Below, piece by piece: positions 1-14,398 of a DNA stretch of 64,000 nucleotides. Source of the DNA: Actinomycetota bacterium (lineage in GTDB: Bacteria; Actinomycetota; CADDZG01; JAHWKV01); the NCBI GenBank assembly GCA_030447305.1, contig JAUJPC010000001.1, positions 451,998-515,997 on the forward strand, given 5' to 3'. Made by a program: the position numbers and the translations under genes. Position 1 is the stretch's first letter. Each line of letters opens with the position of its first letter. The notes under the pieces are model-generated. The model was not told where the DNA came from. It did not search any database and saw nothing but the letters and a program-made list of their open reading frames with translations.

Positions 1-3000
1 CAATGAGCGTCGTCAAAGTGTGGATCCTCACTGGCGGGGAAATTCTCTAGTAACCAGATGAGCAATTCCGCCCTTTCTTCTATCCCCAAAGCTAGGGCGC
101 TCTTGGTCATCCGACTCCGACGCGCAACGGAGAGCATTAATTGCTTGCCGAACGTTGGGTCGGCCCTCATCACCTCCCACAAGGATGGCCACGTCTCCGG
201 AGGTCCGTATTCGAAAATAAGTGAACCGGCGGAGAAGGCGCGCCGCGAGTTCGCCGACCGACCTTCGGGTGACAATGACTCTGATAGTAGCTGGAGTGCC
301 GGTTCATACCGGTGACGTGCCAAAATCTCCGCGATCTCGTGCCAAAACCCATCCGATACGTCTGCTCTCCGGAGGTAGGAGATCAGTTCTAAGGCGACAT
401 CTCTACCCCACATGACGTCGAGCTCATCATCAATGGAGAGAAGCGGTTCGTCCTCTCGCGTGGCTGCCTCCAAAATGGCTCCAGCAGCTCCAAGGAGCTG
501 CCGCCTTGCATGCACTGCAGCGTGCCGGATGAGCTCAGCCTTTGTTTCGCCATCGCTGCCTGCTGGATAAGCGAGAATGATTGGTGCCCATTCGCCCCAA
601 ACATGGTCGGGCACTTGGAGGCATTGATCGGGTGCTGCCCGCCACAACAGCGCGAGTGCACGGAAGCCAGCGAGCACCTTGTAAGGAAAGCGGTCAGTTC
701 CTAACCAGGCATGCGGGTCGCATCGCGCTCTCGTCAGGTACTTGAATGACGCCTCCACAAAACGCCTTTGAATGTCAACTGGAAGAAGTGACCACCGGGG
801 TAGTGCAGTGAGATCCGGTTCCCACTTTCGTACCAGCCGTTGGCCAGGATCGACAGCGACGTAACGCTGCGCCCGCCAAAAGCCATCATTGTCACCGGCT
901 TCAAATGCATCAAGCTGGGACGTAATTTCAGTCTCTATTTCAGTCTGGGAAGGGGCGGGTGGACCAGATTCCAACCGTACTGCTTGGTGGCGGAGCCAAG
1001 CTTTCCGCATGACGGCCGCCCGTTCGGAGCCTAGCTCGACAGCTTCAAACCAGTAGGCGAGGGCGTTTCGAACCGGGTGGATCTCAGGGAGCGCTAGCAC
1101 GACAGCAGCGTGAGGCGCGTGGTCGGGTCGAAAAATGAAATTGACTATCTGGGCCAAAAGCGCAGGACGAGGCGGCTCATTCTCATCGTCATGTCTGGCG
1201 ATCAGCCACGACAAATCGTCCACGGCGACCAGTTTTTGCCCCCGATGAGATTCCAGCCCCACATCAAGGACAACATGTGCAATTTCCGGGTCATCATCTA
1301 CCTCAGCAAAGATGGCGTTTAGGAGCCGGCGTCTTCGCCACGCCGACGGATCCAGCGTTATGCCATCGGCGTTGTACCGACGCTCAACTAACAGATCTTC
1401 GTTCTTCTTGGCGCGGCACACAGTAAGTCTTGCCAAAGCTCGGGCAACTTCCGGTTGATTGATCTGATCCCAAGCTAATTCGACGATGCGGTCAGCGAGA
1501 GGCTCAAAAGCGTCCGGTCGGCCGGTTTGCTCAATCCTTGTTAACCAGTCCAGGAGTTTGTAGACCTGCGTCGGTTGCAGCGACGGAGGAAGCTCGATAG
1601 TGAGGAAGTTCTTGTAGGCACCAAAGAAGTTGAGCCGCCTTGGTGGAGTGAGTGCATCAAGTAGCTCATTCAATGAGATGTGAGAAGGCCACAGGAGGCG
1701 AAGCGCAAGCCCCTTTAGCTCATCGCTCTGATCGTCAGTCACATAATTCAGCGCCAACTCACGCAGCTTATGTACGTCACCAGCCGTAGGGTGGAGCCTC
1801 GCGATTGTCCAACCCGCATGTATTCGTACGCGCAGTTCCTCGTCAGGATCGGTGAGCATCGTGAGAAGCAAATCCGAGAGCGATCCCTCGCCGAGATCGG
1901 CAGCAATGTCGATTGCGAGGATTCGGTCTTCCACTTCTGGGCTACTGAGCCGTCGTCGGAGCTGATCGACCAGACCGGGATGGGCCAGGTGACGGTAGCG
2001 CTGCCGCCATCCTCGCCTAGTTGACGCTTCCCCGCCCCCGAAGAGCCGCCCAATAAGCGATTCAGATAGCGCTCGATCCCCTAACGGGATGCCAGCCGAC
2101 AAGAAGGCGTCAGCATCTAGATCTACCAGAGTCCCGTAGCGAGCTGGGCGCATTGCCACCAGCCAGGCGGCCACTTGACGATAAGCCGGAAAGACTCTTG
2201 TCGTTCCAGTGATATTTGAGGTGAGTAGCTCTTGTACTTTGATCATCGGAAGTTCGTTAGCTTGGAGGTGCCACGCGGTCAAATAGTCTCCATAGCTCTG
2301 GTGCGCCCATCCGAGGCGCTGTTGCCCTCGGGAAGTGAAAAGCCCAGTCCTTAGTACCTCGTCGACTCCAGACCGCTCGACCTGCAAATGACCCGTTTGG
2401 GTCGGCTCGAAGCCCCCTGTACAGTCGTCCAGCCTGAGCATCGTAGTTTTCTTGTGAGCACTACCGCTCGGTGCAACATCAATTCCGGACTTCCCGCAAA
2501 AGATCGATAGTGCGCCGATGCGCCCGGCTATAGCGAGTCTCTGAAAAGGCGTAAGGGTACCGAGGTGGCCAGCATCGCGTCGGTGTGGATTTTGCTCTTC
2601 AGCAAGTAGTTCAAGGCCCTGTCGGTACAAATCGACAAGACTTGTAGGGATCGAACCTTCGCTTGTCTTAAAGATGTCAATCAGCATCCCAAGCGTCAGA
2701 GGCTTGATTGCCAATGAGACTGCCCCAGCCGCTTCAACCCCTCGAGCGAATGCCTCCGCATCAATGAAATGTGCTGAGGCAATTGCTGTTACGTCTCCAC
2801 GCTGTAGCGGAAGAATTTCGACGATCTTGGGTCTAGGCGCCTGAGATTTCAGAGCATCCTCCACCGTAGCTGGCCAGTCGGCTGTTCGGCAGGCGACCCG
2901 GAATCGCAGGCGATCGAGTGGCCAGGATTTAAATTCGCGCGCCAGAATCGTGGCGACTTTTGGTACGTCGAGGCGGCACTCGTCAAGGCTGTCTAGGAAC

Positions 3001-3350
3001 ACGTGAAGAATGCCCGATCCTTCCTTCCATGTAGTAACGGTGGGCCCGCGCAGCACCTCTCGTACAAGTCTGTCCTCGTCGCCGTACTCGGCTAAGTCGA
3101 CAGCCAATACATGGGAATCTTGCCTGTTAGCCGCATTGGCCTTGGTTAAGGCGACCACTTGGTGGAGGGCTGTCGTCTTGCCCGCACCCGGCTCTCCAAG
3201 CAGCACCAGGCGGGGTTCGTCAATCAGACTAAAGGTGGGAATGAGATTCCTGTTCGGTGACAATGCCGAACCTGTGTCTGCTAGATAACCGCGATCGTCA
3301 AGTGTGAAGGCGCCGTCCCGCTCACACCAGTAACGCTCTACACTTTCCAC
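1..3350 (-). CDS. NACHT/STAND NTPase with HEAT-like C-terminus, partial
   Basis: Reading the minus strand from GTG 3350 gives one frame without a stop to the left edge, at least 1116 residues with the C-terminus outside the window. The start is the first possible one, because an in-frame TAG lies two codons upstream. Residues 52-60 read GEPGAGKTT (Walker A), and about 117-124 read HVFLDSLDE (Walker B with the extra acidic residue usual in NACHT ATPases). The N-terminus (ERYWC..RDG..) is short, so no effector domain precedes the ATPase. From about residue 430 on, helical repeat-like segments appear (SSPEVEDRILAIDIAADLGE), suggesting a HEAT/Armadillo-type sensor. NACHT STAND proteins in bacteria often sense phage and trigger cell death; that role is inferred here from the architecture and from the neighbouring HEPN and nuclease genes. 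No effector is visible, so it may lie in the missing C-terminus or in a partner gene. Confidence 0.85.
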   Translation of the reverse strand, partial: MESVERYWCERDGAFTLDDRGYLADTGSALSPNRNLIPTFSLIDEPRLVLLGEPGAGKTTALHQVVALTKANAANRQDSHVLAVDLAEYGDEDRLVREVLRGPTVTTWKEGSGILHVFLDSLDECRLDVPKVATILAREFKSWPLDRLRFRVACRTADWPATVEDALKSQAPRPKIVEILPLQRGDVTAIASAHFIDAEAFARGVEAAGAVSLAIKPLTLGMLIDIFKTSEGSIPTSLVDLYRQGLELLAEEQNPHRRDAGHLGTLTPFQRLAIAGRIGALSIFCGKSGIDVAPSGSAHKKTTMLRLDDCTGGFEPTQTGHLQVERSGVDEVLRTGLFTSRGQQRLGWAHQSYGDYLTAWHLQANELPMIKVQELLTSNITGTTRVFPAYRQVAAWLVAMRPARYGTLVDLDADAFLSAGIPLGDRALSESLIGRLFGGGEASTRRGWRQRYRHLAHPGLVDQLRRRLSSPEVEDRILAIDIAADLGEGSLSDLLLTMLTDPDEELRVRIHAGWTIARLHPTAGDVHKLRELALNYVTDDQSDELKGLALRLLWPSHISLNELLDALTPPRRLNFFGAYKNFLTIELPPSLQPTQVYKLLDWLTRIEQTGRPDAFEPLADRIVELAWDQINQPEVARALARLTVCRAKKNEDLLVERRYNADGITLDPSAWRRRRLLNAIFAEVDDDPEIAHVVLDVGLESHRGQKLVAVDDLSWLIARHDDENEPPRPALLAQIVNFIFRPDHAPHAAVVLALPEIHPVRNALAYWFEAVELGSERAAVMRKAWLRHQAVRLESGPPAPSQTEIETEITSQLDAFEAGDNDGFWRAQRYVAVDPGQRLVRKWEPDLTALPRWSLLPVDIQRRFVEASFKYLTRARCDPHAWLGTDRFPYKVLAGFRALALLWRAAPDQCLQVPDHVWGEWAPIILAYPAGSDGETKAELIRHAAVHARRQLLGAAGAILEAATREDEPLLSIDDELDVMWGRDVALELISYLRRADVSDGFWHEIAEILARHRYEPALQLLSESLSPEGRSANSRRAFSAGSLIFEYGPPETWPSLWEVMRADPTFGKQLMLSVARRSRMTKSALALGIEERAELLIWLLENFPASEDPHFDDAH

Positions 3351-3610
3351 CCTCTAATTACACCCCTTGCCTATGACGCTTGTGTAGCTAATTGGTGTCA
3401 CTCTTGCCGAGGTGGTCCCTTCAGACTTCCTCTCCCAAGTTTGATAGGAACGCGCTCGAGTAACGAGGAAAGCTAGTTCGCCGCCTCCGGAGAAGGACCA
3501 GCGGAGTACGCCAGCAATTAGCGGGATATGGCTCCTACGGCCCGTAGAGATGCCAGGAGAGACGCATTACGGATTGCTCATGTGGCGTGATCGTTTCATA
3601 TGAGCCACCG

Positions 3611-4672
3611 TCACGCATTAAAAACCTTGAAAGGTTGATCCGGGTACGCAACCGAAAGAGCGCTGTCGAGATGTAGGCGGACATCCAGCCTCTCAGCGCT
3701 CTTGCGCCACCTGACTAGATCGTCCTCTAAGGGACCTTTACCCAATCGGCCCGGTTCTCTTCCCTTTATCACTGCATCAAAGGCGTTGCCAATCACGTCG
3801 TTCAGGACATTTGCCCCGTCAACGGCGGAAAAAGTGAACTCAGGCGACCATGGACTGTTCAGTATTAGAAACACGAGAGACTGCTCAAGCGGTGACTCGT
3901 ACGACAAATGATCTCGCCAGAAGTTGGCGGGCTCGATGTACCCTTGCCCGACGGAGAAGAGTGCATGCACTAACAGGCCCTCCCTACCCGAGATGATTCC
4001 GTCCTCTGGCGCCTGTGCCCAGGGACGAGCGGACCAGGTGAGTTGAAGCTGCACGTCGTAGTGACGGTCGCAGTGATCGATCAGGCGCTTCGCATCTTGA
4101 TGTTCTTGCAGGAGCCAACCCTCAGCGATGGGATCATCCATTCGCTTAGTGAAGTACGACCGGTGGTTGTGGGCCTCGAGCGCAACACGTGCTCCGTGTT
4201 CGAGGCTGCGTAGTGTTAGCTCAACTCGGTTAAGGTCATCGTCATTTGGTCGACGGCAATGCATGTTCCGGTTACGAAGCTCCTGCAACTCGTCTACCAC
4301 GCCCTCCCAGCGCGGCCTCGGAAGTAAAGACGGTTCGAATAAGGGCCAATGCTCGTCGCTCGCGACCAGCTGAAACAAATATGAAACGTCTAAATATGCC
4401 AATACGTTTGACCAGTCTGGGCTCGCCATGTATCTATTGATCAAGTCTTTGGCGCTTCGATTTGCAGCTTGTTTTTCTAGCTGATGAATCCAGCGGTGGC
4501 CGTATTTGGCCCTCAACTCGAGATATACGAGCTGGCGCAACCAAGTTTCAAGCTGCCACCATCTGGCGAAGAAAGCGACGGCATTCGGCGGGACCCCAAG
4601 TTCAACAGCTCGACTCAACGAGCGGCGGATGGCCCCTGCAACCCGCTGCCAATAATCTTCGTTCGTTTTCAT
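3611..4672 (-). CDS. Swt1-like HEPN domain protein (putative RNase)
   Basis: 353 residues. The N-terminal third is helical with WWQLETWLRQL followed by AKYGHRW, resembling the Swt1/HEPN family. Residues 133-138 read RNRNMH, an exact RX4H motif of the HEPN ribonuclease fold, set in the usual 'EL.NRNMHCR' helix. The C-terminal half (from about 180) is not recognised. It lies between the NACHT gene and the integrase, all on the minus strand, but is separated from each by 150-260 nt, so it may have its own promoter. HEPN proteins commonly act as toxins or abortive-infection RNases; that activity is inferred, while the motif is seen directly. No cognate MNT antitoxin is visible next to it. Confidence 0.65.
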   Translation of the reverse strand: MKTNEDYWQRVAGAIRRSLSRAVELGVPPNAVAFFARWWQLETWLRQLVYLELRAKYGHRWIHQLEKQAANRSAKDLINRYMASPDWSNVLAYLDVSYLFQLVASDEHWPLFEPSLLPRPRWEGVVDELQELRNRNMHCRRPNDDDLNRVELTLRSLEHGARVALEAHNHRSYFTKRMDDPIAEGWLLQEHQDAKRLIDHCDRHYDVQLQLTWSARPWAQAPEDGIISGREGLLVHALFSVGQGYIEPANFWRDHLSYESPLEQSLVFLILNSPWSPEFTFSAVDGANVLNDVIGNAFDAVIKGREPGRLGKGPLEDDLVRWRKSAERLDVRLHLDSALSVAYPDQPFKVFNA

Positions 4673-4828
4673 CTCTGGAAAGCGAGTAGGAAAGCCGCGA
4701 CTGGGCAGTTGCTGAATACTGTTGGTATCTCGACAAAACGAAGGCCGCTAAAACAGATTATTACTGCTGCGACGTTGACATGGTTCGCCACTAAGGCTTC
4801 GGGTTAAGTTCCTTACGCCTCTCAGGAC

Positions 4829-5998
4829 TTATGAACCGTAAACGACGGCCGCAACCCGGTCGGCCGCGTCCTGTTGCTGGCCAGGCATTTCATGACCGTA
4901 GGTGTCCAGGGTGAAACTCACGCTCGCATGTCCGAGCCGCTTTGACACAACAAGTATGTTCACGCCGGCCTGCAGCGCCAGGCTCGCGCTTGTGTGCCGA
5001 CAGTCGTGAAACCGGATCGTCGGGACTCCCGACTTTTTGATTAAACGCTTGAACGCCCGGCCAAATGCTTCGGGGTGAACCAACTCCCCGTTCTCGCAGG
5101 TGAACACCAGGCCGGAATCCTGATAAGCCGGACCCCAGGCAAGACGTTCTTCCGCTTGCCGGCTCTTATGGACCTTCAGAACCTGCACTGTCTTTGAGTC
5201 GAGGTCCAGCGTCCGGCCCCCAGCGACGCTTTTGGGAGAGCCAAACTGAGGTCGGTAAGCCACGCTGATCAGCGTCTGGTTAACCGTCAGCCTGCCAGCC
5301 TCCAGATCGACATCCTTCCAGCGAAGACCCAAGATCTCGCCTTTGCGCATACCGGTGCAGAGTGCCAGAGCCCACGCTGCCCATAGCCGATCCTGTTCGG
5401 CATGGGTGAGGAACTGTTGAGCCTCCGGGGGGGTCCAGTGCTTCATTTCTTCCTGAACCAGCTTCGGGGGCCTAACAAGCAGAGCAACGTTTCTTTGAAC
5501 CAGCCCGTCGGTTACGGCGTCCCGCAGCGCAAGCTGCAGGACCGCATGGATGTAACGGATGGTCCGGCAGGACAGGCCCCCGGGTTCGCCGTCTTTGCGT
5601 CCGCCCTCCTGGGCCAAGGCCGAGTAGAGCCGGCGTAGGTGGCAGGCCTTGAGGTCCTGTAGGGCAATAGCTCCAAGCCGTGGAATGATCTGGCGCTTGA
5701 CGAGGCTTGAGTAGCTTAGGTGGGTAGATGGTTTCACTTGGGAGCTCATGCTGGGAATCCAGTCCGCAAGGTAATCTCCGACGGTCACTGAGCTCGGCTG
5801 AACGTACTCCCCCCGATCTATCTCCAAAAGAGTTGAGCGCACCCATCGCCAGCCCTCACGCTCGCTCTTGAAGGCATTCGTTCTAGTGAGTTGCTTGCGC
5901 CGACCGGTCGCCGGGTCGACGCCGATGTCGACCACAGCACTCCATGCGTCGTACGGCGCACCATCGCGTCGTTTCCGCTGGAATACTCGTCCTTTCAT
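4829..5998 (-). CDS. int: Tyrosine recombinase / integrase
   Basis: 389 residues, the usual size for actinobacterial integrases. The N-terminus (MKGRVFQRKRRDG..YDAW) is the arm-type AP2-like DNA-binding domain. A core-binding domain occupies about 70-190 and the catalytic domain 190-389. The catalytic residues are all visible: Arg in CTGMRKGEILGLRW, Lys in SPKSVAG, the HDCRHTSASL box (His-x-x-Arg), His in LGHAS and Tyr in DTYGHE. A cysteine replaces the common leucine in the HDLRHT box, which should be neutral. With the excisionase and replication-relaxation genes upstream in the same direction it forms the integration module of an actinobacterial integrative element. The tRNA-Asn fragment at 12592 is a candidate attachment site but lies 6.6 kb away, so the pairing is not proven. 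Confidence 0.93.
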   Translation of the reverse strand: MKGRVFQRKRRDGAPYDAWSAVVDIGVDPATGRRKQLTRTNAFKSEREGWRWVRSTLLEIDRGEYVQPSSVTVGDYLADWIPSMSSQVKPSTHLSYSSLVKRQIIPRLGAIALQDLKACHLRRLYSALAQEGGRKDGEPGGLSCRTIRYIHAVLQLALRDAVTDGLVQRNVALLVRPPKLVQEEMKHWTPPEAQQFLTHAEQDRLWAAWALALCTGMRKGEILGLRWKDVDLEAGRLTVNQTLISVAYRPQFGSPKSVAGGRTLDLDSKTVQVLKVHKSRQAEERLAWGPAYQDSGLVFTCENGELVHPEAFGRAFKRLIKKSGVPTIRFHDCRHTSASLALQAGVNILVVSKRLGHASVSFTLDTYGHEMPGQQQDAADRVAAVVYGS

Positions 5999-6105
5999 CT
6001 AACCGACCTTCCGTGCCGTTCCTGCCCGCCGTACCGCTTGAGCGTCATAACAACGACGATACGGATCCGGGTGACACGGACCGGAACAGCGAGAAACCAG
6101 CCATT

Positions 6106-6363
6106 TCATCGGTCCGCTCCCGTGGATCCGCCGGAGCTGGAGCCGTCCAGGAGTTCCTGAAGGGCTCTGCGCGGTACCCGCAGGCGCCGGCCAAGCCTTA
6201 ATGCTGGAATTTCGCCCCGACGTACCGCCTCGTAGGCGGCCGAGCGGCCGATCCGCAACAGGCGGGCCGTTTCCTCGACCGTGTAGACGCTAACTGCAGC
6301 GCTCCCCTCAGCCGCGAGGGGCCTGCCATCCGATTCGGGCGGCGAAGAGCTCGGGCTATTCAT
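6106..6363 (-). CDS. xis: Excisionase-like helix-turn-helix protein
   Basis: 85 residues from ATG 6363, chosen because it overlaps the stop of the upstream replication-relaxation gene by 8 nt (ATGAATAG); an ATG at 6399 would reach into that gene. Residues from about 26 read YTVEETARLLRIGRSAAYEA, then RGEIPALRLGRRLRVPR, a classic MerR-like/excisionase winged HTH of the helix_turn_helix_17 type. Such proteins bind next to the attachment site and direct the integrase towards excision. It sits directly upstream of int, 107 nt away, the standard xis-int order. Part of the Ser/Pro-rich start may be disordered. Confidence 0.85.
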   Translation of the reverse strand: MNSPSSSPPESDGRPLAAEGSAAVSVYTVEETARLLRIGRSAAYEAVRRGEIPALRLGRRLRVPRRALQELLDGSSSGGSTGADR

Positions 6364-7193
6364 GGCTGAAGTCTTCCAGGGAGAGTCGTATGTCCCCATC
6401 CAGCGGGAGCCAGATTGGCTCCAGCGGCCTGTCGCGGTGCCAGTCCAGGATGGTGGTCGCGACGGTTAGGCGTCTAGATCGAAGAGCTGGCCTGGCGAAC
6501 CGCTCTCGCCTTGTGCTTGGAAAGCAGAACAACAGCAGCTTCGGCAGATGGTTTGAGATGGCGGCTTCGTCGTAGTCGACCATCTTGTGCAGCAGCCTGG
6601 CGCACTCTTCGGTCGCTCGGTCCAGCTCCAGGTAGAAGGCAATCTTTCCCGATGGCGTTCGCAGAGTGGCGATCCCGTCCGGCCTGACGACGCCTTGGCA
6701 CAGCGAGGCACTTGAGGCCTCCCCGAGCCAGCTGGTAACTGCGAAGCTGTCGGTTTGTCGGCAGACCTCGCTCAGTCGGCAGAAAAAGTCGTTCACTTGC
6801 CTCATGGGTTCAGCCGAGGGCTGTTAACCAGAGCGAGGTGCCGGCTCTTGCGAAGGTGCAGCGTGTTGGCGTCGATGCCGCGGGCGTGGGAGACGATGTC
6901 AGCCCCGAGCTTGTCCAGCACGTAGTGCCAGGGCCAGGACCCGGGTCTTTTCGGGGCCGGAAGCGGTTGAGCAATCCCAGCAGGTAAAGCTCATGGAGTC
7001 TGACCCGAGCTCGGGCATGGGTGGAGAAATGAAGTTGGTAGACCTGAGTGGTGGTGAGGAATCGGTGATCAAAGATGTCGAGACAGATGTCCAGGTCTCT
7101 TTGAGTAAGGTTGGAGAGCACGGATACAGAATCGAATCTGTATCGGTTAGGCAATACAGATTGAGTGGAGGTCTTGACTGCGCGTCGCATCAA
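6356..7193 (-). pseudogene. Replication-relaxation family protein, two frameshifts
   Basis: Three pieces in different frames add up to one replication-relaxation protein. Piece one (7193 to about 6940) has the N-terminal HTH: RDLDICLDIFDHRFLTTTQV and LHELYLLGLLNRF. At about 6938-6944 the frame must shift by one base to continue as PWHYVLDKLGADIVSHARG and RKSRHLALVNSPRLNP. A second shift at about 6805 (CCATGA, the A shared) leads into RQVNDFFCRL and the C-terminal nuclease-like half ending LEDFSHE. Spacing between the segments matches the family without a gap. The gene family is typical of plasmids and actinobacterial integrative elements. Either the gene is dead, so the element cannot replicate or transfer on its own, or both shifts are sequence errors. 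Confidence 0.75.
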
Positions 7194-7832
7194 GCCTCCT
7201 CAGGCATGGATGTGCTCAGTTGAGACCCGCGCGGTCTCGGACGCGCGCCATAGGCACCTCCAGATCGCGCGACAGATTGCGCGAGATAGTGATCCGGCCG
7301 GCTCAGGCGTCGCTCCGACGTCGCACTGCTCTTGGATGACGCCAGCAACAAATTCTTCGAGAATTAGGACGGGCCGATGCAGATTTGCCGCGGACCTGAC
7401 CAGGGCACGATTTCAGAACAAGTGCGCGAGGGCAGGTTGTGACGTCGGTACCAATTTGCCTAGTGCGCGGGACTAGCGTGGTCAGCGATCCCTTCATCGA
7501 GTCTTTAACCATGGCAAGCAGTCTGAAGTAGGCGCGTCGCCGGAACGTCGCTATGGCGTCGCTGTGCCGACGTGCCCGAAAGTCAGGTCTCCAGTGACGC
7601 CAAGAGGCCACCGAACCGGTCCTACTTAGCGTCCCGGGGTGTTCCTGCGGGCAGTTAAGAGAGATCGTCTTTAAACTGATTGAAGGGGAGTTCTATGCCG
7701 CTCATGGCCCTGACGCCTATGCCGACTTGTTTTGCGTGTCCACCGGGAGTCGTTATCGGGTTGGGAGTTATCGAGGTCAGAGTAACCCGTAGTGAGGCGC
7801 ACCAGAAACCAGAAGTGGCAACATTGAAATAG
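7194..7832. other. Non-coding or unrecognised stretch
   Basis: 639 nt between the divergently oriented replication-relaxation gene and the nuclease-like gene. The open frames are short and mutually overlapping and show no family motif. It should contain the promoters of both flanking genes, but no convincing -10/-35 pair, tRNA or repeat is visible. It may be the scar of a lost gene of the island. Confidence 0.4.
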
Positions 7833-9254
7833 ATGTTGGCGCTCAAATCTCTCCGAACGCATGCCAAGGTCGATGTGGCGGACCTGAAGGCTTCCTTGGT
7901 GGCTCTTTCTGATGGGCCTTGGAAGCCCGCTTTCACGGAGTCCCAACGAGCGCTTGCGCGTTGCGCCGGCGCTGGTGACGATTTGGTTCCCAAGCTCGGT
8001 CCCACATTCGCGCTTCGCCCAAGCTTTGGGTCTCCGGGTGAGAGTTTTGGCGACCTAATATTCAGGGACGGAAGTGCGTACTACGTCTTTACGTCCCTAT
8101 CCGAGGATCCCTTCCTTGAAGTGGGCGTTGTTCAGCCGGGCGCGGATGCTACCGACCTTGATGAATTCGCGGACGCTGTCAAGCAAGCGATACTCTCGTC
8201 CCTCGACGGTCGGAAAACGCGCCATATGAGACTCGACTGGTCGGCAGTCAGGACCACATCAACTCAGTTAGACAATCTCGTTGCATCGGAACGGGAGACG
8301 TCTGGCATAGAGCTTCAGCGAGCTCGCTTGGATAGCGATGAATTGAAGGCGGCTGTCGTCCTTGAGCCGCGAACCACAAGAACGATCCTTATCGAGATAT
8401 CACAGGCCGGGTTCGCCCGAGAACAAGACATCCTTGCTCGAAGAGGCAAGGCGAAGGAGGAAGCCAGGGAGGCGCTCAACGAACTCAAGAGTGCAGGCCT
8501 AGTCGGCGTCGAATATCTAGTCGAGTGCAAGAAGGCCGGCACGCCGATAAGTCGCCTCCAAAGTCCTGACGACCTCAGTGACCCCGCAGTCGCCAGACTG
8601 AAATGTCCCGGTTGCGGGCGTACCTTCCCCGAGGAATCCCTAAGTGAGGCGTTTTCAATGTCGGAACTTGGCAAACGCATGACTCGGAAGAGTCACTGGA
8701 TGACCGTGGCGGTCACGAGTCGCCTGGTTGAAATAGGGGTTCCAATAGAAGGGATTCTATGGAACATCTCCGAGGGTGGGGATGAGGTCGATCTTGTCGT
8801 AGATGTAGTTGGGGATCTCTGGTTGTTCGAACTGAAAGATAGAGAATTCGGTGCCGGCGACGCCCATCCTTTCAACTACAGACAGGTTAGGTACAAGGCC
8901 GCTAAGGCGGTTGTCATAACTACCGAGAAGGTATCCCCCGACGCTCGGCGCGTTTTCCAGGAACTATCAAGGGAAGGGCGTGGCCAGCGCTCGAATCCGA
9001 TCTACGTTGAGGGATTGGAGAACACCGAGCCTGTCCTCACCCAAGAGATCGAGGCGGCTTACAGAAGGCAAGCCGCGAGAAAGCTCATCCGAGTTGGCTC
9101 AACCACCGGAATCGACTTTCGGCCGCTTTTGAAGGCCCACTTCGAAATTCCGGAACTCGAACAGGAGACTGTCGATTATGGCGATTACTTTATGTCGCCC
9201 GCAGTTTTTCGGAGTTGGGGAGGCCTCGGGGGATTCGCCGAGGAGGATCTCTGA
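7833..9254 (+). CDS. PD-(D/E)XK nuclease-like protein with winged-helix region
   Basis: 473 residues, not assignable to a named family. Residues about 190-250 look like a winged helix (FAREQDILARRGKAKEEARE, then ALNELKSAGLVGVEYL). A single CPGCG knuckle follows at about 265. The C-terminal part has the layout of a restriction-type nuclease core: Asp320 in DEVDLVVDVVGD and Glu333-x-Lys335 in LWLFELKDREFGAG, 13 residues apart, with a following YRQVRYKA helix. This is the D-(X)n-E-X-K pattern, typical of PD-(D/E)XK enzymes. It stands alone on the plus strand, 640 nt from the integrase module and 345 nt before the HEPN fusion. A role as a defence effector or Card1/RecB-like nuclease is inference. 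The start ATG has only a weak ribosome-binding site; GTG 7876 is an alternative. Confidence 0.6.
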   Translation: MLALKSLRTHAKVDVADLKASLVALSDGPWKPAFTESQRALARCAGAGDDLVPKLGPTFALRPSFGSPGESFGDLIFRDGSAYYVFTSLSEDPFLEVGVVQPGADATDLDEFADAVKQAILSSLDGRKTRHMRLDWSAVRTTSTQLDNLVASERETSGIELQRARLDSDELKAAVVLEPRTTRTILIEISQAGFAREQDILARRGKAKEEAREALNELKSAGLVGVEYLVECKKAGTPISRLQSPDDLSDPAVARLKCPGCGRTFPEESLSEAFSMSELGKRMTRKSHWMTVAVTSRLVEIGVPIEGILWNISEGGDEVDLVVDVVGDLWLFELKDREFGAGDAHPFNYRQVRYKAAKAVVITTEKVSPDARRVFQELSREGRGQRSNPIYVEGLENTEPVLTQEIEAAYRRQAARKLIRVGSTTGIDFRPLLKAHFEIPELEQETVDYGDYFMSPAVFRSWGGLGGFAEEDL

Positions 9255-9599
9255 AGCAGCTACCTCGCCTCATGTGGAGAACCTAACGGGAGTGCCATGA
9301 ATGGCCGTGGGAGGCCCTCGGCGCCCATCTGGCTGCAAGAAGGGTCGTGGAACTCTTAATTAGCGTTTACCGTACTCCCCTACCTAACTGCCTACTCCAA
9401 CCGACCATCGTGCTTCGCGGCGGCGGCTAAGCGGGCATCACTTAAGCCGACCGGACGATGAGGAAGCCAAAGGGCGCGAACATCTAGAAAAGCCCTGCCC
9501 CAACTACCCGTGGATAGACGGGTAACAGTTCCGATCCCTTGTAGCCGAGTTAGCCTGCGCTCCCCCGCTCAAATGCCAGCAGCGCTACGATTTTTGCCA
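9255..9599. other. Intergenic stretch between convergent genes
   Basis: 345 nt between two convergent stops. No gene, repeat or strong hairpin was recognised; it should hold the transcription ends of the two flanking island genes. Confidence 0.4.
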
Positions 9600-10430
9600 C
9601 TAGTACTCGCTGAATGCAAGGTGCAGGTCGTTGCGCACGGCCACGAAAATTGCCAAGACGGCCTCACCAGCATTTATCAAGCGAACGTCTCGTGCCGAAT
9701 CAAATGGCCATTTACCCCCATGGAAGAGGTTGTTGCGCACTCGATATGTCATTTCCAAGAGCCATTCGAGATCGACTTCATCAGTCGGTGGAGGTCCCTC
9801 CAGCAGCCATTCCAAATGACCCTGGCGAACGACTTGCTTGGCAGGTGGCTCTGCAACGAGTGGCGCGACTTCCTGAAGCAGCGCATGGTCCAACGGAATA
9901 TATGGGGATGTTTCTGCTGCTAAACGGCGCCACTCAATCAGTACTCTTTCACCTTGTTGCCGAACATAGCCGAGCGACTTCAAGGCATACTCGAATCGCG
10001 AAAAGACCATCAGAAATCGGGCACTTGCGACCCACGCTTCGCCAAGTTCGTAGGAAGATAGGGATTGAAGCAATAGATTCCGTCCTTGCTCCAAATCCTG
10101 GTCGGTTTTTTCCGTCTTATACTTGTCACGCCGACCGGACTTGGCCTCAAGCCACTGCTTCAATGAACGTTGCGATTCGGAAGACGGCACCCCCGCCAAT
10201 AAGTCGCTAGTCGAGATGTCTTCGTCAATCTCGGGCCAGTGAATGCCTTGTCCACGTCCAATCAAACGCCAGTTCGAGAGTTCATTAGCTGAAGCGTGGG
10301 TGAGCCTCGGGTACCAGGCTATGGGCGCGGAGATGGTTCGCCCATCACTGAGGTCGACCTGCAAAGAGTCGCCACTAATTGACACTGAGACGGCGACTGT
10401 CTCGGCGCGGTCAATCGATGAAGAACTCAT
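9600..10430 (-). CDS. DUF2442-HEPN fusion protein
   Basis: 276 residues from ATG 10430, which overlaps the end of the DUF4160 gene by 20 nt; a start at 10445 is possible. Residues 10-80 match the DUF2442 fold (VSISGDSLQVDLSDGRTISA, then WYPRL, then NWRLIGRGQGIHWPEIDEDI). Residues 110-276 are helical and carry RVRNNLFHGGK, in which Arg232 to His237 is an RX4H HEPN motif. Stand-alone DUF2442 proteins are usually under 100 residues, so the C-terminal HEPN part is an addition. DUF4160 and DUF2442 genes are often neighbours in a toxin-antitoxin-like order; here the fusion could be the toxic RNase half. That role is inferred. Confidence 0.7.
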   Translation of the reverse strand: MSSSSIDRAETVAVSVSISGDSLQVDLSDGRTISAPIAWYPRLTHASANELSNWRLIGRGQGIHWPEIDEDISTSDLLAGVPSSESQRSLKQWLEAKSGRRDKYKTEKTDQDLEQGRNLLLQSLSSYELGEAWVASARFLMVFSRFEYALKSLGYVRQQGERVLIEWRRLAAETSPYIPLDHALLQEVAPLVAEPPAKQVVRQGHLEWLLEGPPPTDEVDLEWLLEMTYRVRNNLFHGGKWPFDSARDVRLINAGEAVLAIFVAVRNDLHLAFSEY

Positions 10431-10647
10431 TCCACTTCTCCACACAGATCATTCGGTTCTTCTCGACTAGACGCTCAATCCTGCGTAGTTCTGCTGCGTT
10501 GAATCCGGAACTTCTTTCATATCGAACCGGATCTATCCAGTACTTAGCTACCATCGTCTCACGCTCGACATGCACATGGGGTGGCTCCGACCGGTCGGAC
10601 GAAAAGAAGAAGAATCGATATGGGCCGTCGATGAGAACAGTGGGCAT
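10411..10647 (-). CDS. DUF4160 protein
   Basis: 78 residues. The start ATG 10647 gives MPTVLIDGPYRFFFFSSD, the normal beginning of DUF4160 proteins. Upstream codons in the same frame lie antisense to an IS30 fragment and are not part of the gene. Conserved landmarks are EPPHVHVERE, AKYWIDPVR and SSGFNAAELRRIE. The frame ends inside the start of the DUF2442-HEPN gene (20 nt overlap), indicating coupled translation. The family has no settled activity; its fixed pairing with DUF2442 suggests a two-part system, with this small protein as a possible antidote or partner. Confidence 0.8.
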   Translation of the reverse strand: MPTVLIDGPYRFFFFSSDRSEPPHVHVERETMVAKYWIDPVRYERSSGFNAAELRRIERLVEKNRMICVEKWNEFFID

Positions 10648-10671
10648 CTTGCTGAGCTTAAGTCCGTCACG

Positions 10672-10812
10672 GGCCTTCTCCAGGGACGGGGCGAGCTCCG
10701 CCGGGAGCTGCACCGCTGCCTGCGCACCGGCCGAGCCCAGCGCCGCCCCAAGAGCATGGCCGAGAACCGTGGCCGGATCCCGAACATGGTGATGATCTCC
10801 GAGCGCGGTTAG
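10672..10812 (+). pseudogene. IS30-family transposase fragment
   Basis: In frame with 10672 the sequence reads GRGELRRELHRCLRTGRAQR and then NRGRIPNMVMISERG before a stop. This is the middle of an IS30-type transposase, where the enzyme normally continues into ERPAEV..GHWEGDL. Only about 46 codons remain and no inverted repeats are seen. It lies antisense to sequence directly upstream of DUF4160, so an IS30 element once inserted at or beside that promoter and then decayed. Confidence 0.7.
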
Positions 10813-11029
10813 ACCCAGCGCCCCCGGTTAGACCCACGCCTGTGTGTGCCACACATATCTACTTTAACAAGCGACACTTTTGCCGATCTTTACTTCGAGC
10901 GTTTTTCATCTGGCTGCACCGATGAGATGGCTAACCTCACCGATAAGGCGACCTGGCCGTGAGGCCAGCAAGCAATCTCTCCGGACCTGGCAAACCGTGT
11001 CCGGACGACCGAAGCGAAGGAGAAGGTTC

Positions 11030-11635
11030 ATGTTTGAGTCACTATTCGCCACCCTGGCGGCGAAGATTGTTGCCGGCGCTATCGCCGCCGTAATGGCTGT
11101 CACCTCAGGACTTGCTGCCGGCGGTCATCTGCCCGACGACATGCAGACTGCCATCTCCCGTGCGCTAAACGAGATTGGTTTCGACATTCCTGCCGGCGAC
11201 ACCCCAGAAGAAGTCTCGGAAGGTGCCGAGGACACTAACGACTCGGATGACCCCGCGGATGTCGAGGACTCTGACGACGACTCGGATGACCCCGCGGATG
11301 TCGAGGACTCTGACGACGACTCGGATGACCCCGCGGATGTCGAGGACGCTGACGACGACTCGGATGACCCCGCGGATGTCGAGGACGCTGACGACGACTC
11401 GGATGACCCCGCGGATGTCGAGGACGCTGACGACGACTCGGGTGATCCCGCGGATGTCGAGGACTCACAGGACGACGCAGATCACGAAGACTCGGATGAC
11501 CCCGCGGATGTCGAGGACTCACAGGACGACGCAGATCACGACGACTCGGATGACGACGAAGATGACCGCGACTCCGACGACGATGACGAGCATGCAGAGG
11601 TTGCTGACTCTAACGATGACTCGGAAGAGGACTAA
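11030..11635 (+). CDS. Exported Asp-rich tandem-repeat protein
   Basis: 201 residues from ATG 11030, preceded by GAAGGAGAAGG, a good ribosome-binding site. Residues 3-30 form a hydrophobic segment (AAKIVAGAIAAVMAVTSGLA) that acts as a signal or membrane anchor, followed by HLPDDMQTAISRALNEIGF. From about residue 65 the protein is almost wholly Asp, Ser, Pro, Ala, Val and Glu, in 13-residue units of the type SDDPADVEDSDDD. The tail is acidic (DDDEDDRDSDDDDEH). Similar short membrane-anchored, acidic-repeat proteins occur in actinomycetes without known function. Calcium or cation binding at the cell surface is a reasonable guess. It has its own likely terminator hairpin at 11769. Confidence 0.75.
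   Translation: MFESLFATLAAKIVAGAIAAVMAVTSGLAAGGHLPDDMQTAISRALNEIGFDIPAGDTPEEVSEGAEDTNDSDDPADVEDSDDDSDDPADVEDSDDDSDDPADVEDADDDSDDPADVEDADDDSDDPADVEDADDDSGDPADVEDSQDDADHEDSDDPADVEDSQDDADHDDSDDDEDDRDSDDDDEHAEVADSNDDSEED
11240..11540 (+). repeat. 39-nt tandem coding repeat
   Basis: A unit beginning GACTCGGATGACCCCGCGGA recurs at 11240, 11279, 11318, 11357 and 11396, exactly 39 nt apart, then at 11435 with two changes and at 11489 after a 54-nt step. Near identity of the first five copies shows recent duplication, so copy number probably varies between strains. Confidence 0.9.
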
Positions 11636-11768
11636 CAGACTTGGTAACCGAACCACGACTAGCGGTTGCGTCGCACTGACACCAAGCCACGCCTTGCGGT
11701 CGAGAAGGGTGGCCGCTGACCCGCCACATGTCTCCTGCCCGGCGGCGGCCTAAGTACTGCAACCAAGG

Positions 11769-11803
11769 GTGGAGACGTTGGGTTCTTTTTCGAACGTCCC
11801 CAC
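11769..11803 (+). terminator. Hairpin terminator of the repeat-protein gene
   Basis: GTGGAGACGTT (11769-11779) can pair with AACGTCCCCAC (11793-11803) with one A-C mismatch around a 13-nt loop, followed by TTT. It lies 134 nt after the stop of the Asp-rich gene. Confidence 0.45.
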
Positions 11804-12545
11804 TTTCACTTATACGAGCGTGTAACGCACGCCTCTAGAACTCCAGGTCATCTCCACACGCGTATGGTGTGGCCCGGCTGCCTTACAATTTCCGGACCGC
11901 ACTATAACTTCACACCGAGCATGACCTACTGCTTTTTTAAAGAGTCGTGCCGGACGGTGAACATCTGGCTCGGCCCCTAGAGCCATCTCTTGATGAGCTG
12001 CGATAACCCCAAGGCCATTAAGACCAGGGCTTCCGTTGAAATCTCCAATAAGCAAGGAGATGACCTTTCGGGCTCGCCTCTCCTAGTCCAGATTCTGGCG
12101 CGTTAGGGAGGCCAAACCCAGACGAATGCTTCGGCCTCCAAAACCGAAGGAATGGACATCATTCAATTGGTAGATGGCGTCGGATGAGGACCGGCCCACC
12201 GGACGGACGGCGGACGGAGGGAATTTCGCACCAGTGTATGGCTGCGATGTTTTGCGCGATTGATGCAAACTCTTCGTCACGTTGGAGTTGTTTAAAGGCA
12301 TCAAGAGCAGGCAGTGGTCTAACTACCTCGCTTTTATCCGGAAATTTCGCGAGCAACTAACACCTTTCTAGTGCTCGATCGGATCACATTCACATACAGC
12401 ACAAGTTGGAGAGGCCCCTTGTCTTTGTAGGCCTCTCCGAGCGCCTAGCAGCCAACTCCTGGGCGTGTGTTCACGGATGTGCTCACGAAATATTCCGTAC
12501 CCAGCCGGACCAAGGGGTATGAAGGGGAGTTTTGGCCCCACATAT

Positions 12546-12577
12546 GTGCCTGGAACGGACCTCTTGGGACGCTCCCG
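12546..12577. repeat. Dispersed repeat, copy 1
   Basis: GTGCCTGGAACGGACC followed by a 5-6 nt variable part and GGGACGCTCCCG. The same arrangement recurs at 27009-27041. It lies directly before the tRNA-Asn fragment. Confidence 0.5.
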
Positions 12578-12591
12578 GACGGCCGGTCCCG

Positions 12592-12635
12592 GACTGTTAA
12601 TCAATAGGTTGCGGGTTCGAGTCCCGCCCCCCGAG
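12592..12635 (+). other. 3' fragment of tRNA-Asn(GTT): candidate attachment site
   Basis: The sequence holds an anticodon loop CTGTTAA with GTT, the 3' anticodon stem TCAAT, a variable loop, a perfect T-arm (GCGGG TTCGAGT CCCGC, 12611-12627) and a 3' acceptor strand CCCCCGA plus discriminator. The 5' half of a tRNA is absent: the bases before GACTGTTAA neither pair with TCAAT nor give a D-arm or acceptor. A 3' tRNA copy of this size is what site-specific integration leaves at the distal end of an island. With this orientation the intact gene should lie to the left, outside the window. The reverse strand encodes the odd GGRDSNPQPID tail of the TetR gene. Confidence 0.75.
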
Positions 12636-13259
12636 CAACACGAATGTGTCGGGCCTAGACGCCCCTTTTTGTGCCGCCTCGTTCACCTGGGACCTGATGA
12701 GTGCGTTGGCGGCACTACCAACGTGACCTGCGGCACTGTCCGTGCCGAACATGCCTGCCGCAACGAATGCGCCGTCCATCAGCATGAGCAGCTGAGCGGC
12801 CAGGCCTCCCGGGTCGTCTGCACCGGCTCGCTCCGCCAGATCACTGAGGCGCCGGAGGACTGCCTTCTTGTGCCCCAATGCCACTTGATGGGCTCGATGG
12901 CCGGCGTCCGGAAAATCAGCGGCCGCGTGCTGGAACATGCAGCCGCCGAAGCATTGCGGGCTAGTTGTGAACTCGCCTAGGGACTCAAACAGGTGCAGCA
13001 GCTGCTCAAGGGGTTCACCTCGGCCAAGCGACTTGTCGAACCACACCCAGAACCGCTGATCAGCACGCTCTAGGTAGACCACGATCAATTCGTCCTTGGA
13101 CGGAAAGTGGCGGTAAAGGGTCATCTTCGCGACCCCTGATTTGGCGATAATCGTATCTACGCCCACGCCGACAAACCCGTCGCGGTAGAAGAGCGTGTCG
13201 GCCGCCTCCAAGATTCTCTCCCTGGCCGGCGCCGTTTCCGACAATTTAGCCCTTGACAT
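12597..13259 (-). CDS. TetR/AcrR family regulator
   Basis: 220 residues from ATG 13259. The N-terminal HTH is clear: RERILEAADTLFYRDGFVGV, then GVAKMTLYRHFPSKDELI. The C-terminal ligand domain contains CFGGCMFQHAAADFP, common in regulators of the TetR_C_16/LmrA-like group. The last 11 residues (GGRDSNPQPID) are translated from the complement of a tRNA-Asn fragment, so the original C-terminus was replaced or extended when the island integrated there. Two operator-like inverted boxes lie directly before the start, shared with the divergent acetyltransferase remnant and the SnoaL-like gene, so it probably represses itself and those genes. Confidence 0.9.
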   Translation of the reverse strand: MSRAKLSETAPARERILEAADTLFYRDGFVGVGVDTIIAKSGVAKMTLYRHFPSKDELIVVYLERADQRFWVWFDKSLGRGEPLEQLLHLFESLGEFTTSPQCFGGCMFQHAAADFPDAGHRAHQVALGHKKAVLRRLSDLAERAGADDPGGLAAQLLMLMDGAFVAAGMFGTDSAAGHVGSAANALIRSQVNEAAQKGASRPDTFVLLGGRDSNPQPID

Positions 13260-13261
13260 AT

Positions 13262-13307
13262 ATACAGACCTGTCTTTATTGTAGTACACAGGTAGACCGA
13301 TCTGTAT
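13262..13307. promoter_or_regulatory. Double TetR operator in divergent promoter
   Basis: ATACAGACCTGTCTTTAT (13262-13279) and GTAGACCGATCTGTAT (13292-13307) are inverted relatives of one box, ATACAGAYCKGTCT, which is itself partly palindromic (AGAC-N2-GTCT). They sit between the TetR start and the plus-strand genes and overlap where both promoters must lie. Confidence 0.6.
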
Positions 13308-13337
13308 CGTACCAGAACCCCGTAGGAGGTCAGTGCA

Positions 13338-13657
13338 ATGGATATCAAGCTTCGGCCGGGCACTCCAGAGGACGCCGACGAGTGTGGGCGGATCTGGTAC
13401 GAGGCGTTCAGCACTCTCGCGATGGCGCACGGATTTCCGCCGGATTTTCCGCTGCCGAAAGCAACGACGGGCTTAAAGCCCTGATTGCAGACGCTGAACA
13501 GTTCGCCGGTCCGGGCTTTCTGCTGCCCGCGCGTAATGCGGCAATGTTTCGATGGTGCTTGGAACATGGGCTTCGGGTGGTTCAGCCCATGACTTCGATG
13601 ACGCTTGGGCTCTACAACGAGCCCGGGGGCGCTTACCTGCCCTCTGTTCTGTATTGA
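13338..13657 (+). pseudogene. GNAT acetyltransferase with internal deletion
   Basis: The gene starts at ATG 13338 behind a strong AGGAGGT site and reads MDIKLRPGTPEDADECGRIW, then AFSTLAMAHGFPPDFP, the start of a two-domain GNAT protein. That frame stops at 13484. From about 13465 another frame reads LKALIADAEQFAGPGF, then FRWCLEHGLRVVQPMT and ends YLPSVLY, the C-terminus of the same family. Full-length relatives have well over 100 further residues between these two parts, including the acetyl-CoA binding core. So a deletion removed the catalytic core and changed the frame. The product cannot be an active acetyltransferase. Confidence 0.75.
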
Positions 13658-13723
13658 ACGATGACAAGGCTACGTGACGAGATCGTGAGCTCAGTAGGGC
13701 AAGCACTACCAAGGAGGAGAGGC

Positions 13724-14098
13724 ATGGGGCCGGCTGCAGCTGTCGCCGAACGTATTCGCAGATCGTATGAGGATGAGGACTGGAACTCTCTAAGAAGTCT
13801 GTTTCATGAGGACGCTGTTCAGGAATGGCCGCAGTCAGGGGAGCGTTTCGTCGGGCGAGACAGCATCATCGCAGCAGCACAGAACTATCCCGGCCTGCCG
13901 GAAATGAAGGGATTCAGAGTTGTGGCGGAAAGCGACTCGCTGGCGGTCACCGAGTTACTGCTCGACTACGATGGACGGCCCTACCGTGGGATAGCCGTTA
14001 CGGAGGTTGAAAACGGCCTGGTTCGCAAGCGTACCGAGTACTTCAACGAGCCGTTTGAAGCAGCCGGGTGGCGTGCCGAATGGGCCGAGTCGATGTAG
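13724..14098 (+). CDS. SnoaL/NTF2-like protein
   Basis: 124 residues from ATG 13724, preceded by AAGGAGG with 6-nt spacing. An upstream ATG at 13661 lacks such a site. The sequence follows the SnoaL-like cone fold: ERIRRSYEDEDWNSLRSLFH, then AVQEWPQSGERFVGRDSI, VTELLLDYDGRPYRGIAV and RKRTEYFNEPFEAAGWR. These proteins are small isomerases, hydrolases or polar-ligand binders; the substrate cannot be read. It follows the acetyltransferase remnant by 66 nt and is probably co-transcribed under TetR control. Confidence 0.8.
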   Translation: MGPAAAVAERIRRSYEDEDWNSLRSLFHEDAVQEWPQSGERFVGRDSIIAAAQNYPGLPEMKGFRVVAESDSLAVTELLLDYDGRPYRGIAVTEVENGLVRKRTEYFNEPFEAAGWRAEWAESM

Positions 14099-14398
14099 AG
14101 ACAAGGGCCTTCGGCCGCGGTTGGATGAAGGCAACTTCCAAGAGTCGCTCGCACAGCTCCCGTTACTCAGTCCGCGGAGTGTTCACTAGCGAGCTGTGCT
14201 GCTGGGAGATGACAATTCGCAAGCGCGGGTGAGGGACTCCAGGCGGCCCAAATTATTTCTGGCGCACCGTGCACGAATGTAGAGGGCGCGGTGACTCGCA
14301 TTGCTGGCGAGCCGCCGTCTCCTCCGGGGACTATGGGGCAGGGAGGTCTATATCCGGCCTTCAAAACTGCGAGGCCCATGGGCCGTTTCGAAGGCGCC
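14099..14398. other. Intergenic stretch between convergent genes
   Basis: 300 nt between the SnoaL-like gene and the stop of the small membrane protein. No gene or clear hairpin was recognised. Confidence 0.4.

What the first reader, a model, noticed from the sequence alone, without database searches (positions are those of the whole stretch)
3611..4672. Swt1/HEPN protein with intact RX4H and unknown C-terminal half
Seen: Arg133-x4-His138 in a helix typical of HEPN RNases, plus about 170 unassigned residues. It lies between integrase and NACHT gene, so may be a stand-alone abortive-infection RNase or an effector of the NACHT protein.
Basis: partly seen in the sequence, partly recalled or inferred. 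Interest (0 to 1): 0.55.

Follow-up and report, generated by a model that had tools for sequence, protein, structure and literature searches.

The report
Solo HEPN RNase on mobile element
A mobile DNA element in an uncultured actinobacterium carries a predicted RNA-cutting enzyme of the HEPN type, joined to a conserved second half that may sense infection; it looks like a one-gene anti-virus defence and probably not a partner of the NACHT gene beside it.

Summary
Window 3611-4672 (-) encodes a real 353-aa protein. Residues 41-157 match Pfam HEPN_Swt1 above its cut-off. R133-x4-H138 aligns with the RX4H of other Swt1-type HEPNs and is kept in 33 of 33 homologues, some only 21-28% identical. The 'unknown half' (about 170-353) is a conserved domain: AlphaFold is confident (whole pLDDT 89; domain alone 83). 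Its fold most resembles type III secretion chaperones/YbjN ('TY-chaperone' fold), but only weakly (Z 4-5), with weak profile support; R216, W218, G232 and F351 are its near-invariant residues.
The NACHT link is not supported. No relative of that NACHT occurs near the HEPN gene at 36 of 36 other loci, and no HEPN of this family occurs near 7 of 7 NACHT relatives. No partner gene is conserved; neighbours are varied defence genes, plasmid genes or integrases.
HEPN and NACHT are cargo of a 15.5-kb tRNA-Asn integrative element. A sister element in the same genome carries, in the same slot, a different Swt1-like HEPN protein with RX4H and an unrelated C-terminal half, and no NACHT.
Best reading: a stand-alone, single-protein abortive-infection RNase, HEPN effector plus exchangeable C-terminal sensor/regulator, working like Tha or DS-11. 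RNase activity, trigger and dimer are inferred, not shown.

The parts
3611..4672 (-). 353-aa Swt1-type HEPN protein with its own C-terminal domain
   Evidence: ORF; Pfam HEPN_Swt1 E 3.9e-8, over cut-off; PADLOC PDC-M34B E 4.3e-10; AlphaFold pLDDT 89.4, pTM 0.89
4175..4597 (-). HEPN domain, residues about 26-166 (helices 29-64, 66-78, 119-136, 144-169 in the model)
   Evidence: Pfam stretch 41-157; DSSP of the model; 28 of 29 family members scanned match HEPN_Swt1 at E<=0.01
4259..4276 (-). R133-N-R-N-M-H138, the HEPN RX4H motif
   Evidence: R133, R135 and H138 each 33 of 33; aligned with RX4H of other Swt1-HEPN proteins
3614..4165 (-). C-terminal domain, residues 170-353, predicted alpha/beta; tentative TY-chaperone-like (T3S chaperone/YbjN) arrangement
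   Evidence: model alone pLDDT 82.7, pTM 0.82, with residues 166-184 of the fragment under pLDDT 50; VIA-align Z up to 5.3; profile comparison with YbjN
4019..4027 (-). R216-P-W218, most conserved motif of the C-terminal domain (with G232 and F351)
   Evidence: R216 30/30, W218 28/30, G232 30/30, F351 30/30 among rows with the domain
1..3350 (-). NACHT/HEAT STAND-ATPase gene (1396 aa in full, continues beyond the window start), neighbouring cargo; not part of the HEPN system in my reading
   Evidence: EruA-like, 232 bits against cut-off 1000
4829..5998 (-). tyrosine integrase of the element
   Evidence: Pfam Phage_integrase E 3.2e-21
6106..6399 (-). excisionase-like DNA-binding protein of the element
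   Evidence: NCBIfam TIGR01764 E 4.1e-12
6356..7193 (-). replication-relaxation (Replic_Relax) gene, split between two frames
   Evidence: Pfam Replic_Relax on 6356-6805 and 6810-7193
12592..12638 (.). right attachment repeat: 47-bp exact copy of the 3' end of tRNA-Asn (left copy outside the window at G000:C4:449161-449207)

Best explanation
The gene encodes a stand-alone, single-protein defence RNase. The N-terminal Swt1-type HEPN domain would dimerise and cut RNA with R133 and H138. The conserved C-terminal domain would keep it off and switch it on when it recognises a sign of infection, causing growth arrest or death of the infected cell (abortive infection). The C-terminal domain most likely has a chaperone-like (T3S chaperone/YbjN, 'TY-chaperone') fold, so a peptide or unfolded protein segment is a plausible ligand. 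It travels as cargo of a tRNA-Asn integrative element and works without the neighbouring NACHT gene. Shown here: HEPN family match, motif conservation, two-domain architecture, lack of a conserved partner, mobility, and a sister element with another Swt1-like HEPN in the same slot. Inferred: RNase activity, dimerisation, sensing by the C-terminal domain, phage defence, and the identity of the trigger.
For: HEPN_Swt1 over its cut-off and in 28 of 29 family members scanned (the remaining row is most likely the C-terminal fragment L042, as the call gives only the count). R133/H138 33 of 33 in homologues down to 21-28% identity, in register with other Swt1-HEPNs. Confident two-domain model; the C-terminal domain is present in 30 of 33 rows (the other three rows, L028, L036, L039, are cut by a contig end or split). 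No conserved neighbour: largest other cluster 4 of 37 loci including the window. Neighbours include Hma, Shedu SduA, DISARM DrmA/D, BREX BrxHI, AbiEi/ii, SIR2-HerA, type III methylase and EcoRII-type genes. On plasmids in five records, and a C-terminal part in a sixth; integrase-family gene nearby in 3 loci including the window. Sporadic: full match in 1 of 198 relatives, the window's own genome. GC is 55-57% over the HEPN and NACHT genes against 61-65% at window 14-20 kb. Sister element with a Swt1-like HEPN (RX4H in register) and an unrelated C-terminal half in the same slot, no NACHT there. Precedents read in passages: Tha (PMC11087260) and DS-11 (PMC13092281).
Against: No experiment. No close relative has been tested as far as my searches show. 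The PADLOC tally has no matched control, and several of its models are generic (helicases, methylases). A dimer could not be modelled. The structure listings I saw showed no HEPN chains, because the C-terminal domain filled them, so the HEPN fold rests on sequence profiles and secondary structure. Chaperone-like similarity is weak: Foldseek found nothing with E<=0.001, Z under 5.4, TBP and unrelated chains close behind, and no profile signal with the actinobacterial clade alone. No promoter-like site was found in 3000-6200.
Confidence: 0.6

Rival explanations
1. The HEPN protein is the RNase effector of the adjacent NACHT (STAND) protein, which senses phage and activates it.
For: Same strand, next gene, 260 bp apart; bacterial NACHT proteins work with nuclease effectors, as a rule in the same chain (passages of PMC12169576).
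Against: No relative of this NACHT at any of 36 other HEPN loci; no HEPN of this family in the fetched surroundings of 7 of 7 NACHT relatives; the sister element has a HEPN in that slot and no NACHT-sized frame.
Confidence: 0.06
2. It is an RNase toxin that stabilises the element (addiction) or acts on competing elements, held in check by an antitoxin or by its own C-terminal domain, with phage defence secondary.
For: Cargo of an integrative element and of plasmids; HEPN toxins in toxin-antitoxin pairs are well known (PMC3710099 passages).
Against: No conserved neighbour that could be an antitoxin; between this gene and the NACHT gene the only same-strand frame of 20 aa or more is a 49-aa one overlapping its 3' end.
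Confidence: 0.15
3. The C-terminal domain is not a sensor but a substrate-specificity or RNA-binding module, so the enzyme cuts a particular RNA without a protein trigger.
For: Near-invariant R216/W218/G232/F351 could form a binding or catalytic site; TBP chains, a nucleic-acid binding fold, lie just behind the chaperones in the structure list.
Against: Rows of the T3S chaperone/YbjN type lead both lists, and the YbjN profile aligns over most of the domain.
Confidence: 0.15
4. It is a non-defence gene, an inactive HEPN or a decaying remnant.
For: Split or truncated copies exist: L020, L039, L042 and the Burkholderia plasmid copy.
Against: Here the frame is intact and R133/H138 are kept in all rows examined; distribution is sporadic and mobile.
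Confidence: 0.04

Closest known systems
HEPN_Swt1 (Pfam PF18731; Swt1/Abi2 group of Anantharaman et al. 2013, PMC3710099)
   Same: HEPN sequence profile over cut-off, RX4H in register
   Different: Most Swt1-HEPN matches in the phylum sample lie in open frames of about 850-2100 aa; none of the other 20 loci there matches this C-terminal domain
Tha (S. aureus prophage, PMC11087260, passages read)
   Same: Single protein, HEPN RNase with RX4H plus another part of unknown fold
   Different: Tha's HEPN is C-terminal and is triggered by tail proteins; sequence relation not tested here
DS-11, CBS-HEPN one-protein system (PMC13092281, passages read)
   Same: One protein joining HEPN to a regulatory domain
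   Different: No CBS domain here
PADLOC candidate PDC-M34B
   Same: Profile match E 4.3e-10 over 62-184 of 192 positions; the sister-element HEPN matches too
   Different: Match covers the HEPN part only; no PDC-M34A found among the element proteins scanned
TY-chaperones (T3S class I chaperones, YbjN, TY-Chap; PMC9503650, passages read)
   Same: Predicted order helix-strand-strand-helix-strand-strand-helix, and best structural matches for the C-terminal domain
   Different: Z only 4-5, no Pfam match, an extra RPW motif and C-terminal tail, fused to HEPN

Membership tests
HEPN_Swt1 (PF18731) | profile score above curated cut-off | tested here: met
   34 bits against 27.5; 28 of 29 members match at E<=0.01
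HEPN_Swt1 (PF18731) | R-x4-6-H motif in register and conserved | tested here: met
   33 of 33; aligned to other Swt1-HEPNs
HEPN_Swt1 (PF18731) | HEPN four-helix bundle | tested here: inconclusive
   helices as expected, but the fold list covered mainly the C-terminal part and no model of the HEPN part alone was made
HEPN_Swt1 (PF18731) | dimeric RNase activity | not testable with these tools
Abi2/AbiD/AbiF | Pfam Abi_2 profile match | tested here: not met
   no such family among matches to E 10 for P0001
Tha | sequence homology to Tha and activation by phage tail protein | not tested
   Tha not fetched or compared; only paper passages read
DS-11 type CBS-HEPN | CBS domain | tested here: not met
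   no CBS match
TY-chaperone fold (C-terminal domain) | same fold as T3S chaperones/YbjN | tested here: inconclusive
   9 of top 12 rows, Z 4.4-5.3; 14 of top 16 rows, Z 4.2-4.7; unrelated rows close behind
TY-chaperone fold (C-terminal domain) | sequence profile match to YbjN/TY-Chap | tested here: inconclusive
   no Pfam hit; hhalign with YbjN P 0.0012 for the proteobacterial clade, 0.0074 for all rows, 0.23 for the actinobacterial clade; none for TY-Chap1; 0 of 300 shuffles reach the first score
PDC-M34 (PADLOC candidate) | M34B with partner M34A | tested here: inconclusive
   M34B matched, no M34A among proteins scanned
EruA NACHT (neighbour gene) | score over NCBIfam cut-off | tested here: not met
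   232 bits against 1000 for the full 1396 aa
tRNA-targeted integrative element | tyrosine integrase, excisionase and direct repeats at a tRNA 3' end | tested here: met

The most novel reading that the evidence does not exclude
A new one-gene immune sensor-effector: a HEPN RNase fused to a type III secretion chaperone/YbjN-like domain that binds an unfolded segment of a phage protein, and a family of integrative elements that swaps Swt1-like HEPN enzymes with different sensor halves through one cargo slot.
Probability: 0.28. Interest if true: 0.65.

Novelty: new variant of a known kind. Interest (0 to 1): 0.42.

Why it matters
HEPN RNases are among the commonest defence effectors, yet the signals that trigger the solo ones are mostly unknown (general knowledge). 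A conserved, well-predicted regulatory half gives a defined object to test: does a chaperone-like domain read phage proteins? Sister elements with an alike HEPN half and different C-terminal halves in one slot would be a natural swap experiment on sensor specificity.

Tried and rejected
NACHT-effector model: rejected on mutual decoupling. The test covers relatives of this NACHT only (phmmer E<=1e-3, the 1116 aa inside the window, ORFs of 80 aa or more), and some loci end at contig ends.

Phage or viral homologues: none by tblastn in phages, none in viral contigs, no BFVD fold match with E<=0.001. Solved structures by sequence: none for P0001; with the family profile only weak hits, best E 0.046. 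Rfam: no RNA family in window 1-13000. Promoter scan: nothing; one terminator-like site on the plus strand, fewer than in shuffles. C-terminal domain apart from HEPN: in 396 genomes of the phylum only the window's own copy; the Burkholderia plasmid copy has the C-terminal part only and may be a remnant. EruA literature: not found; the EruA of PMC12839154 is an E. coli regulator of the same name (listing and start of abstract only). HEPN fold by structure search: no HEPN chains in the rows shown; absence is not evidence, since the C-terminal domain filled them. Right edge of the element: the DNA beyond 12638 found no match at that place in relatives apart from the repeat, so another element may follow in tandem, and the family search gave no clean empty site.

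Rows dropped before counts: three of 31 genome loci (L020, L041, L042) because the frame was under 200 aa, and the Burkholderia fragment; one near-copy plasmid hit (H3) not fetched; for the structure alignment A3, L039, L040 and L041 and the plasmid rows were also left out, while pieces of L020, L028, L036 and L042 were kept; nine of 127 neighbour proteins not passed to the family scans. The neighbour scans have no control set. Profile comparison was tried on three C-domain alignments and two families, so the best P of 0.0012 is one of six. Only 7 of the 16 places where NACHT relatives were found outside the window's genome (15 plasmid records, one genome; near-copies among them) were examined.

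Full report
OBSERVATION. The ORF at 3611-4672 (-) is intact: ATG to stop, 353 aa. Pfam finds HEPN_Swt1 at 34 bits (cut-off 27.5, E 3.9e-8, residues 41-157) and a sub-threshold HEPN_SAV2148 match. PADLOC gives PDC-M34B at E 4.3e-10, HEPN part only. NCBIfam has no match for the protein. P0001 contains five R-x4-6-H strings, so the string alone is no evidence; its position and conservation are.

RELATIVES. tblastn found six plasmid records: Arthrobacter x3, Aurantiacibacter, Acidisarcina, and a Burkholderia record with the C-terminal part only. A scan of the genome collection (84,980 species) returned 31 loci, labelled Actinomycetota, Pseudomonadota, Chloroflexota and Myxococcota. In 33 sequences of 200 aa or more (the window, 4 plasmids, 28 genomes), R133, R135, H138, R140, D146, R149, G160, D76 and G232 are kept in all 33; identity to P0001 falls to 21-28% in the far clade for most rows. 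The patterns of the genome scan lie outside the RX4H. The family HMM aligns this RX4H with the RX4H of other Swt1-HEPN proteins from the phylum, for example RNRWAH and RNAWAH; two of the weaker relatives shown keep the R and H in register too. In the tree, an actinobacterial and a mainly proteobacterial clade split with full support; a Nocardioides sequence and the Acidisarcina plasmid sequence (a long branch, placed with low certainty) lie in the second clade, as expected for a mobile gene. The full-length protein is rare: 1 of 198 relatives, the window's own genome; of the other five genomes in that tally four matched over residues 78-154 or less and one over 5-156, that is, the HEPN part.

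C-TERMINAL HALF. It is not disordered or arbitrary. AlphaFold with 29 rows gave pLDDT 89.4 and pTM 0.89 for the whole protein; the domain alone with 26 rows gave 82.7 and 0.82, with its last 19 residues under pLDDT 50. The order is helix 192-204, strands 207-215 and 233-241, helix 248-255, strands 266-271 and 277-282, helix 287-304, with short extra elements. Near-invariant residues: R216 30/30, W218 28/30, G232 30/30, T280 28/30, F351 30/30. Foldseek gave nothing with E<=0.001. VIA-align put type III secretion chaperones or YbjN proteins in 9 of the top 12 rows for the whole model (Z 4.4-5.3; InvB 98 residues, 3.5 A) and in 14 of the top 16 for the domain alone (Z 4.2-4.7). These Z values are in the range of common arrangements, and TBP follows at 4.1, so fold membership is tentative. 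hhalign with a YbjN alignment spans 104-110 columns: P 0.0012 with the proteobacterial clade, 0.0074 with all rows; with the actinobacterial clade 0.23 over 28 columns; unrelated controls 0.13-0.73. None of 300 shuffled YbjN alignments reached the first score; 1 of 300 reached the second. TY-Chap1 gave nothing. PMC9503650 (passages) describes T3SS/YbjN-type 'TY-chaperones' as predicted peptide binders in conflict systems, with a DALI Z of 5.6 for one of its own assignments. In the library searched I found no paper on a HEPN/TY-chaperone fusion (searches).

NACHT NEIGHBOUR. The gene is 1396 aa in full and is a distant EruA relative (232 bits, cut-off 1000). Its relatives are absent from 36 of 36 other HEPN loci, and the HEPN family is absent from 7 of 7 NACHT-relative loci (loci). 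HEPN and NACHT are therefore most likely independent cargo.

CONTEXT. A tRNA-Asn lies 2.8 kb left of the window. A 47-bp exact repeat of its 3' end recurs at window 12592-12638, giving a 15.5-kb element with integrase, excisionase and a split Replic_Relax gene. A sister element lies on contig C1 (L121): its integrase-relaxation module is 88-89% identical in DNA and the ends match, but the slot between left end and integrase differs. There lie a 390-aa protein with R-I-P-L-M-H (PDC-M34B E 4.7e-10; HEPN_SAV2148 E 1.2e-3 and HEPN_Swt1 E 0.012, both under cut-off; family HEPN HMM E 3.4e-8 in a search of two proteins, RX4H in register) and a 318-aa protein with RSKLVH and no Pfam match; the C-terminal half of the first does not match the C-domain HMM. 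Across the other loci no neighbour is conserved: the largest other cluster is 4 of 37 loci. Among 118 of 127 nearby proteins selected, PADLOC lists Hma, SduA, DrmA/D, BrxHI, AbiEi/ii, SIR2-HerA, type III methylase and other defence genes, most in one member each (no control set).

MECHANISM. Shown: family, motif, two domains, mobility, no partner. Inferred: HEPN dimer cuts RNA; the C-terminal domain holds it off and reads a trigger; the outcome is abortive infection. Precedents: Tha, a 301-aa HEPN protein with R265-x4-H270 switched on by tail proteins (PMC11087260, passages), and DS-11, CBS plus HEPN in one protein (PMC13092281, passages). The HEPN superfamily survey (PMC3710099, passages) lists many Swt1/Abi2 fusions; I saw none like this one in the passages read.

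VERDICT. A real, mobile, probably stand-alone HEPN RNase with a conserved second domain: new variant of a known kind. The NACHT link is not supported.

Noticed in passing
L121 (G000:C1:72000-89000) 4246-14814: Sister integrative element, 88-89% identical integrase module, different cargo: Swt1-like HEPN with RX4H, a second protein with RSKLVH, and an OLD/AAA-type ATPase (AAA_15 E 5.6e-13).
   Followed up: partly
window 9600-10445 (-) and 10411-10713 (-): DUF2442 protein with a C-terminal R-N-N-L-F-H (RX4H) stretch, possibly a second HEPN in the same element (no HEPN profile match), next to a DUF4160 gene.
   Followed up: partly
window 6356-7193 (-): Replication-relaxation gene split between two frames, so it may be broken, or the assembly has a frameshift.
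   Followed up: partly
window 7833-9254 (+): 473-aa protein with CxxC pairs and a weak Mrr_cat match (E 0.048); possible restriction-type cargo.
   Followed up: no
window 10880-11635 (+): ORF with a repetitive acidic DDPADVEDSDDD-type stretch.
   Followed up: no
window 12592-12638; G000:C1:74863-74907 and C1:205471-205515: Further near-copies of the tRNA-Asn attachment core elsewhere in the genome, suggesting more elements of this family.
   Followed up: partly
L011 6977-7456: Burkholderia plasmid copy of the C-terminal domain without a HEPN part, beside an AAA ATPase and a restriction-modification pair.
   Followed up: partly
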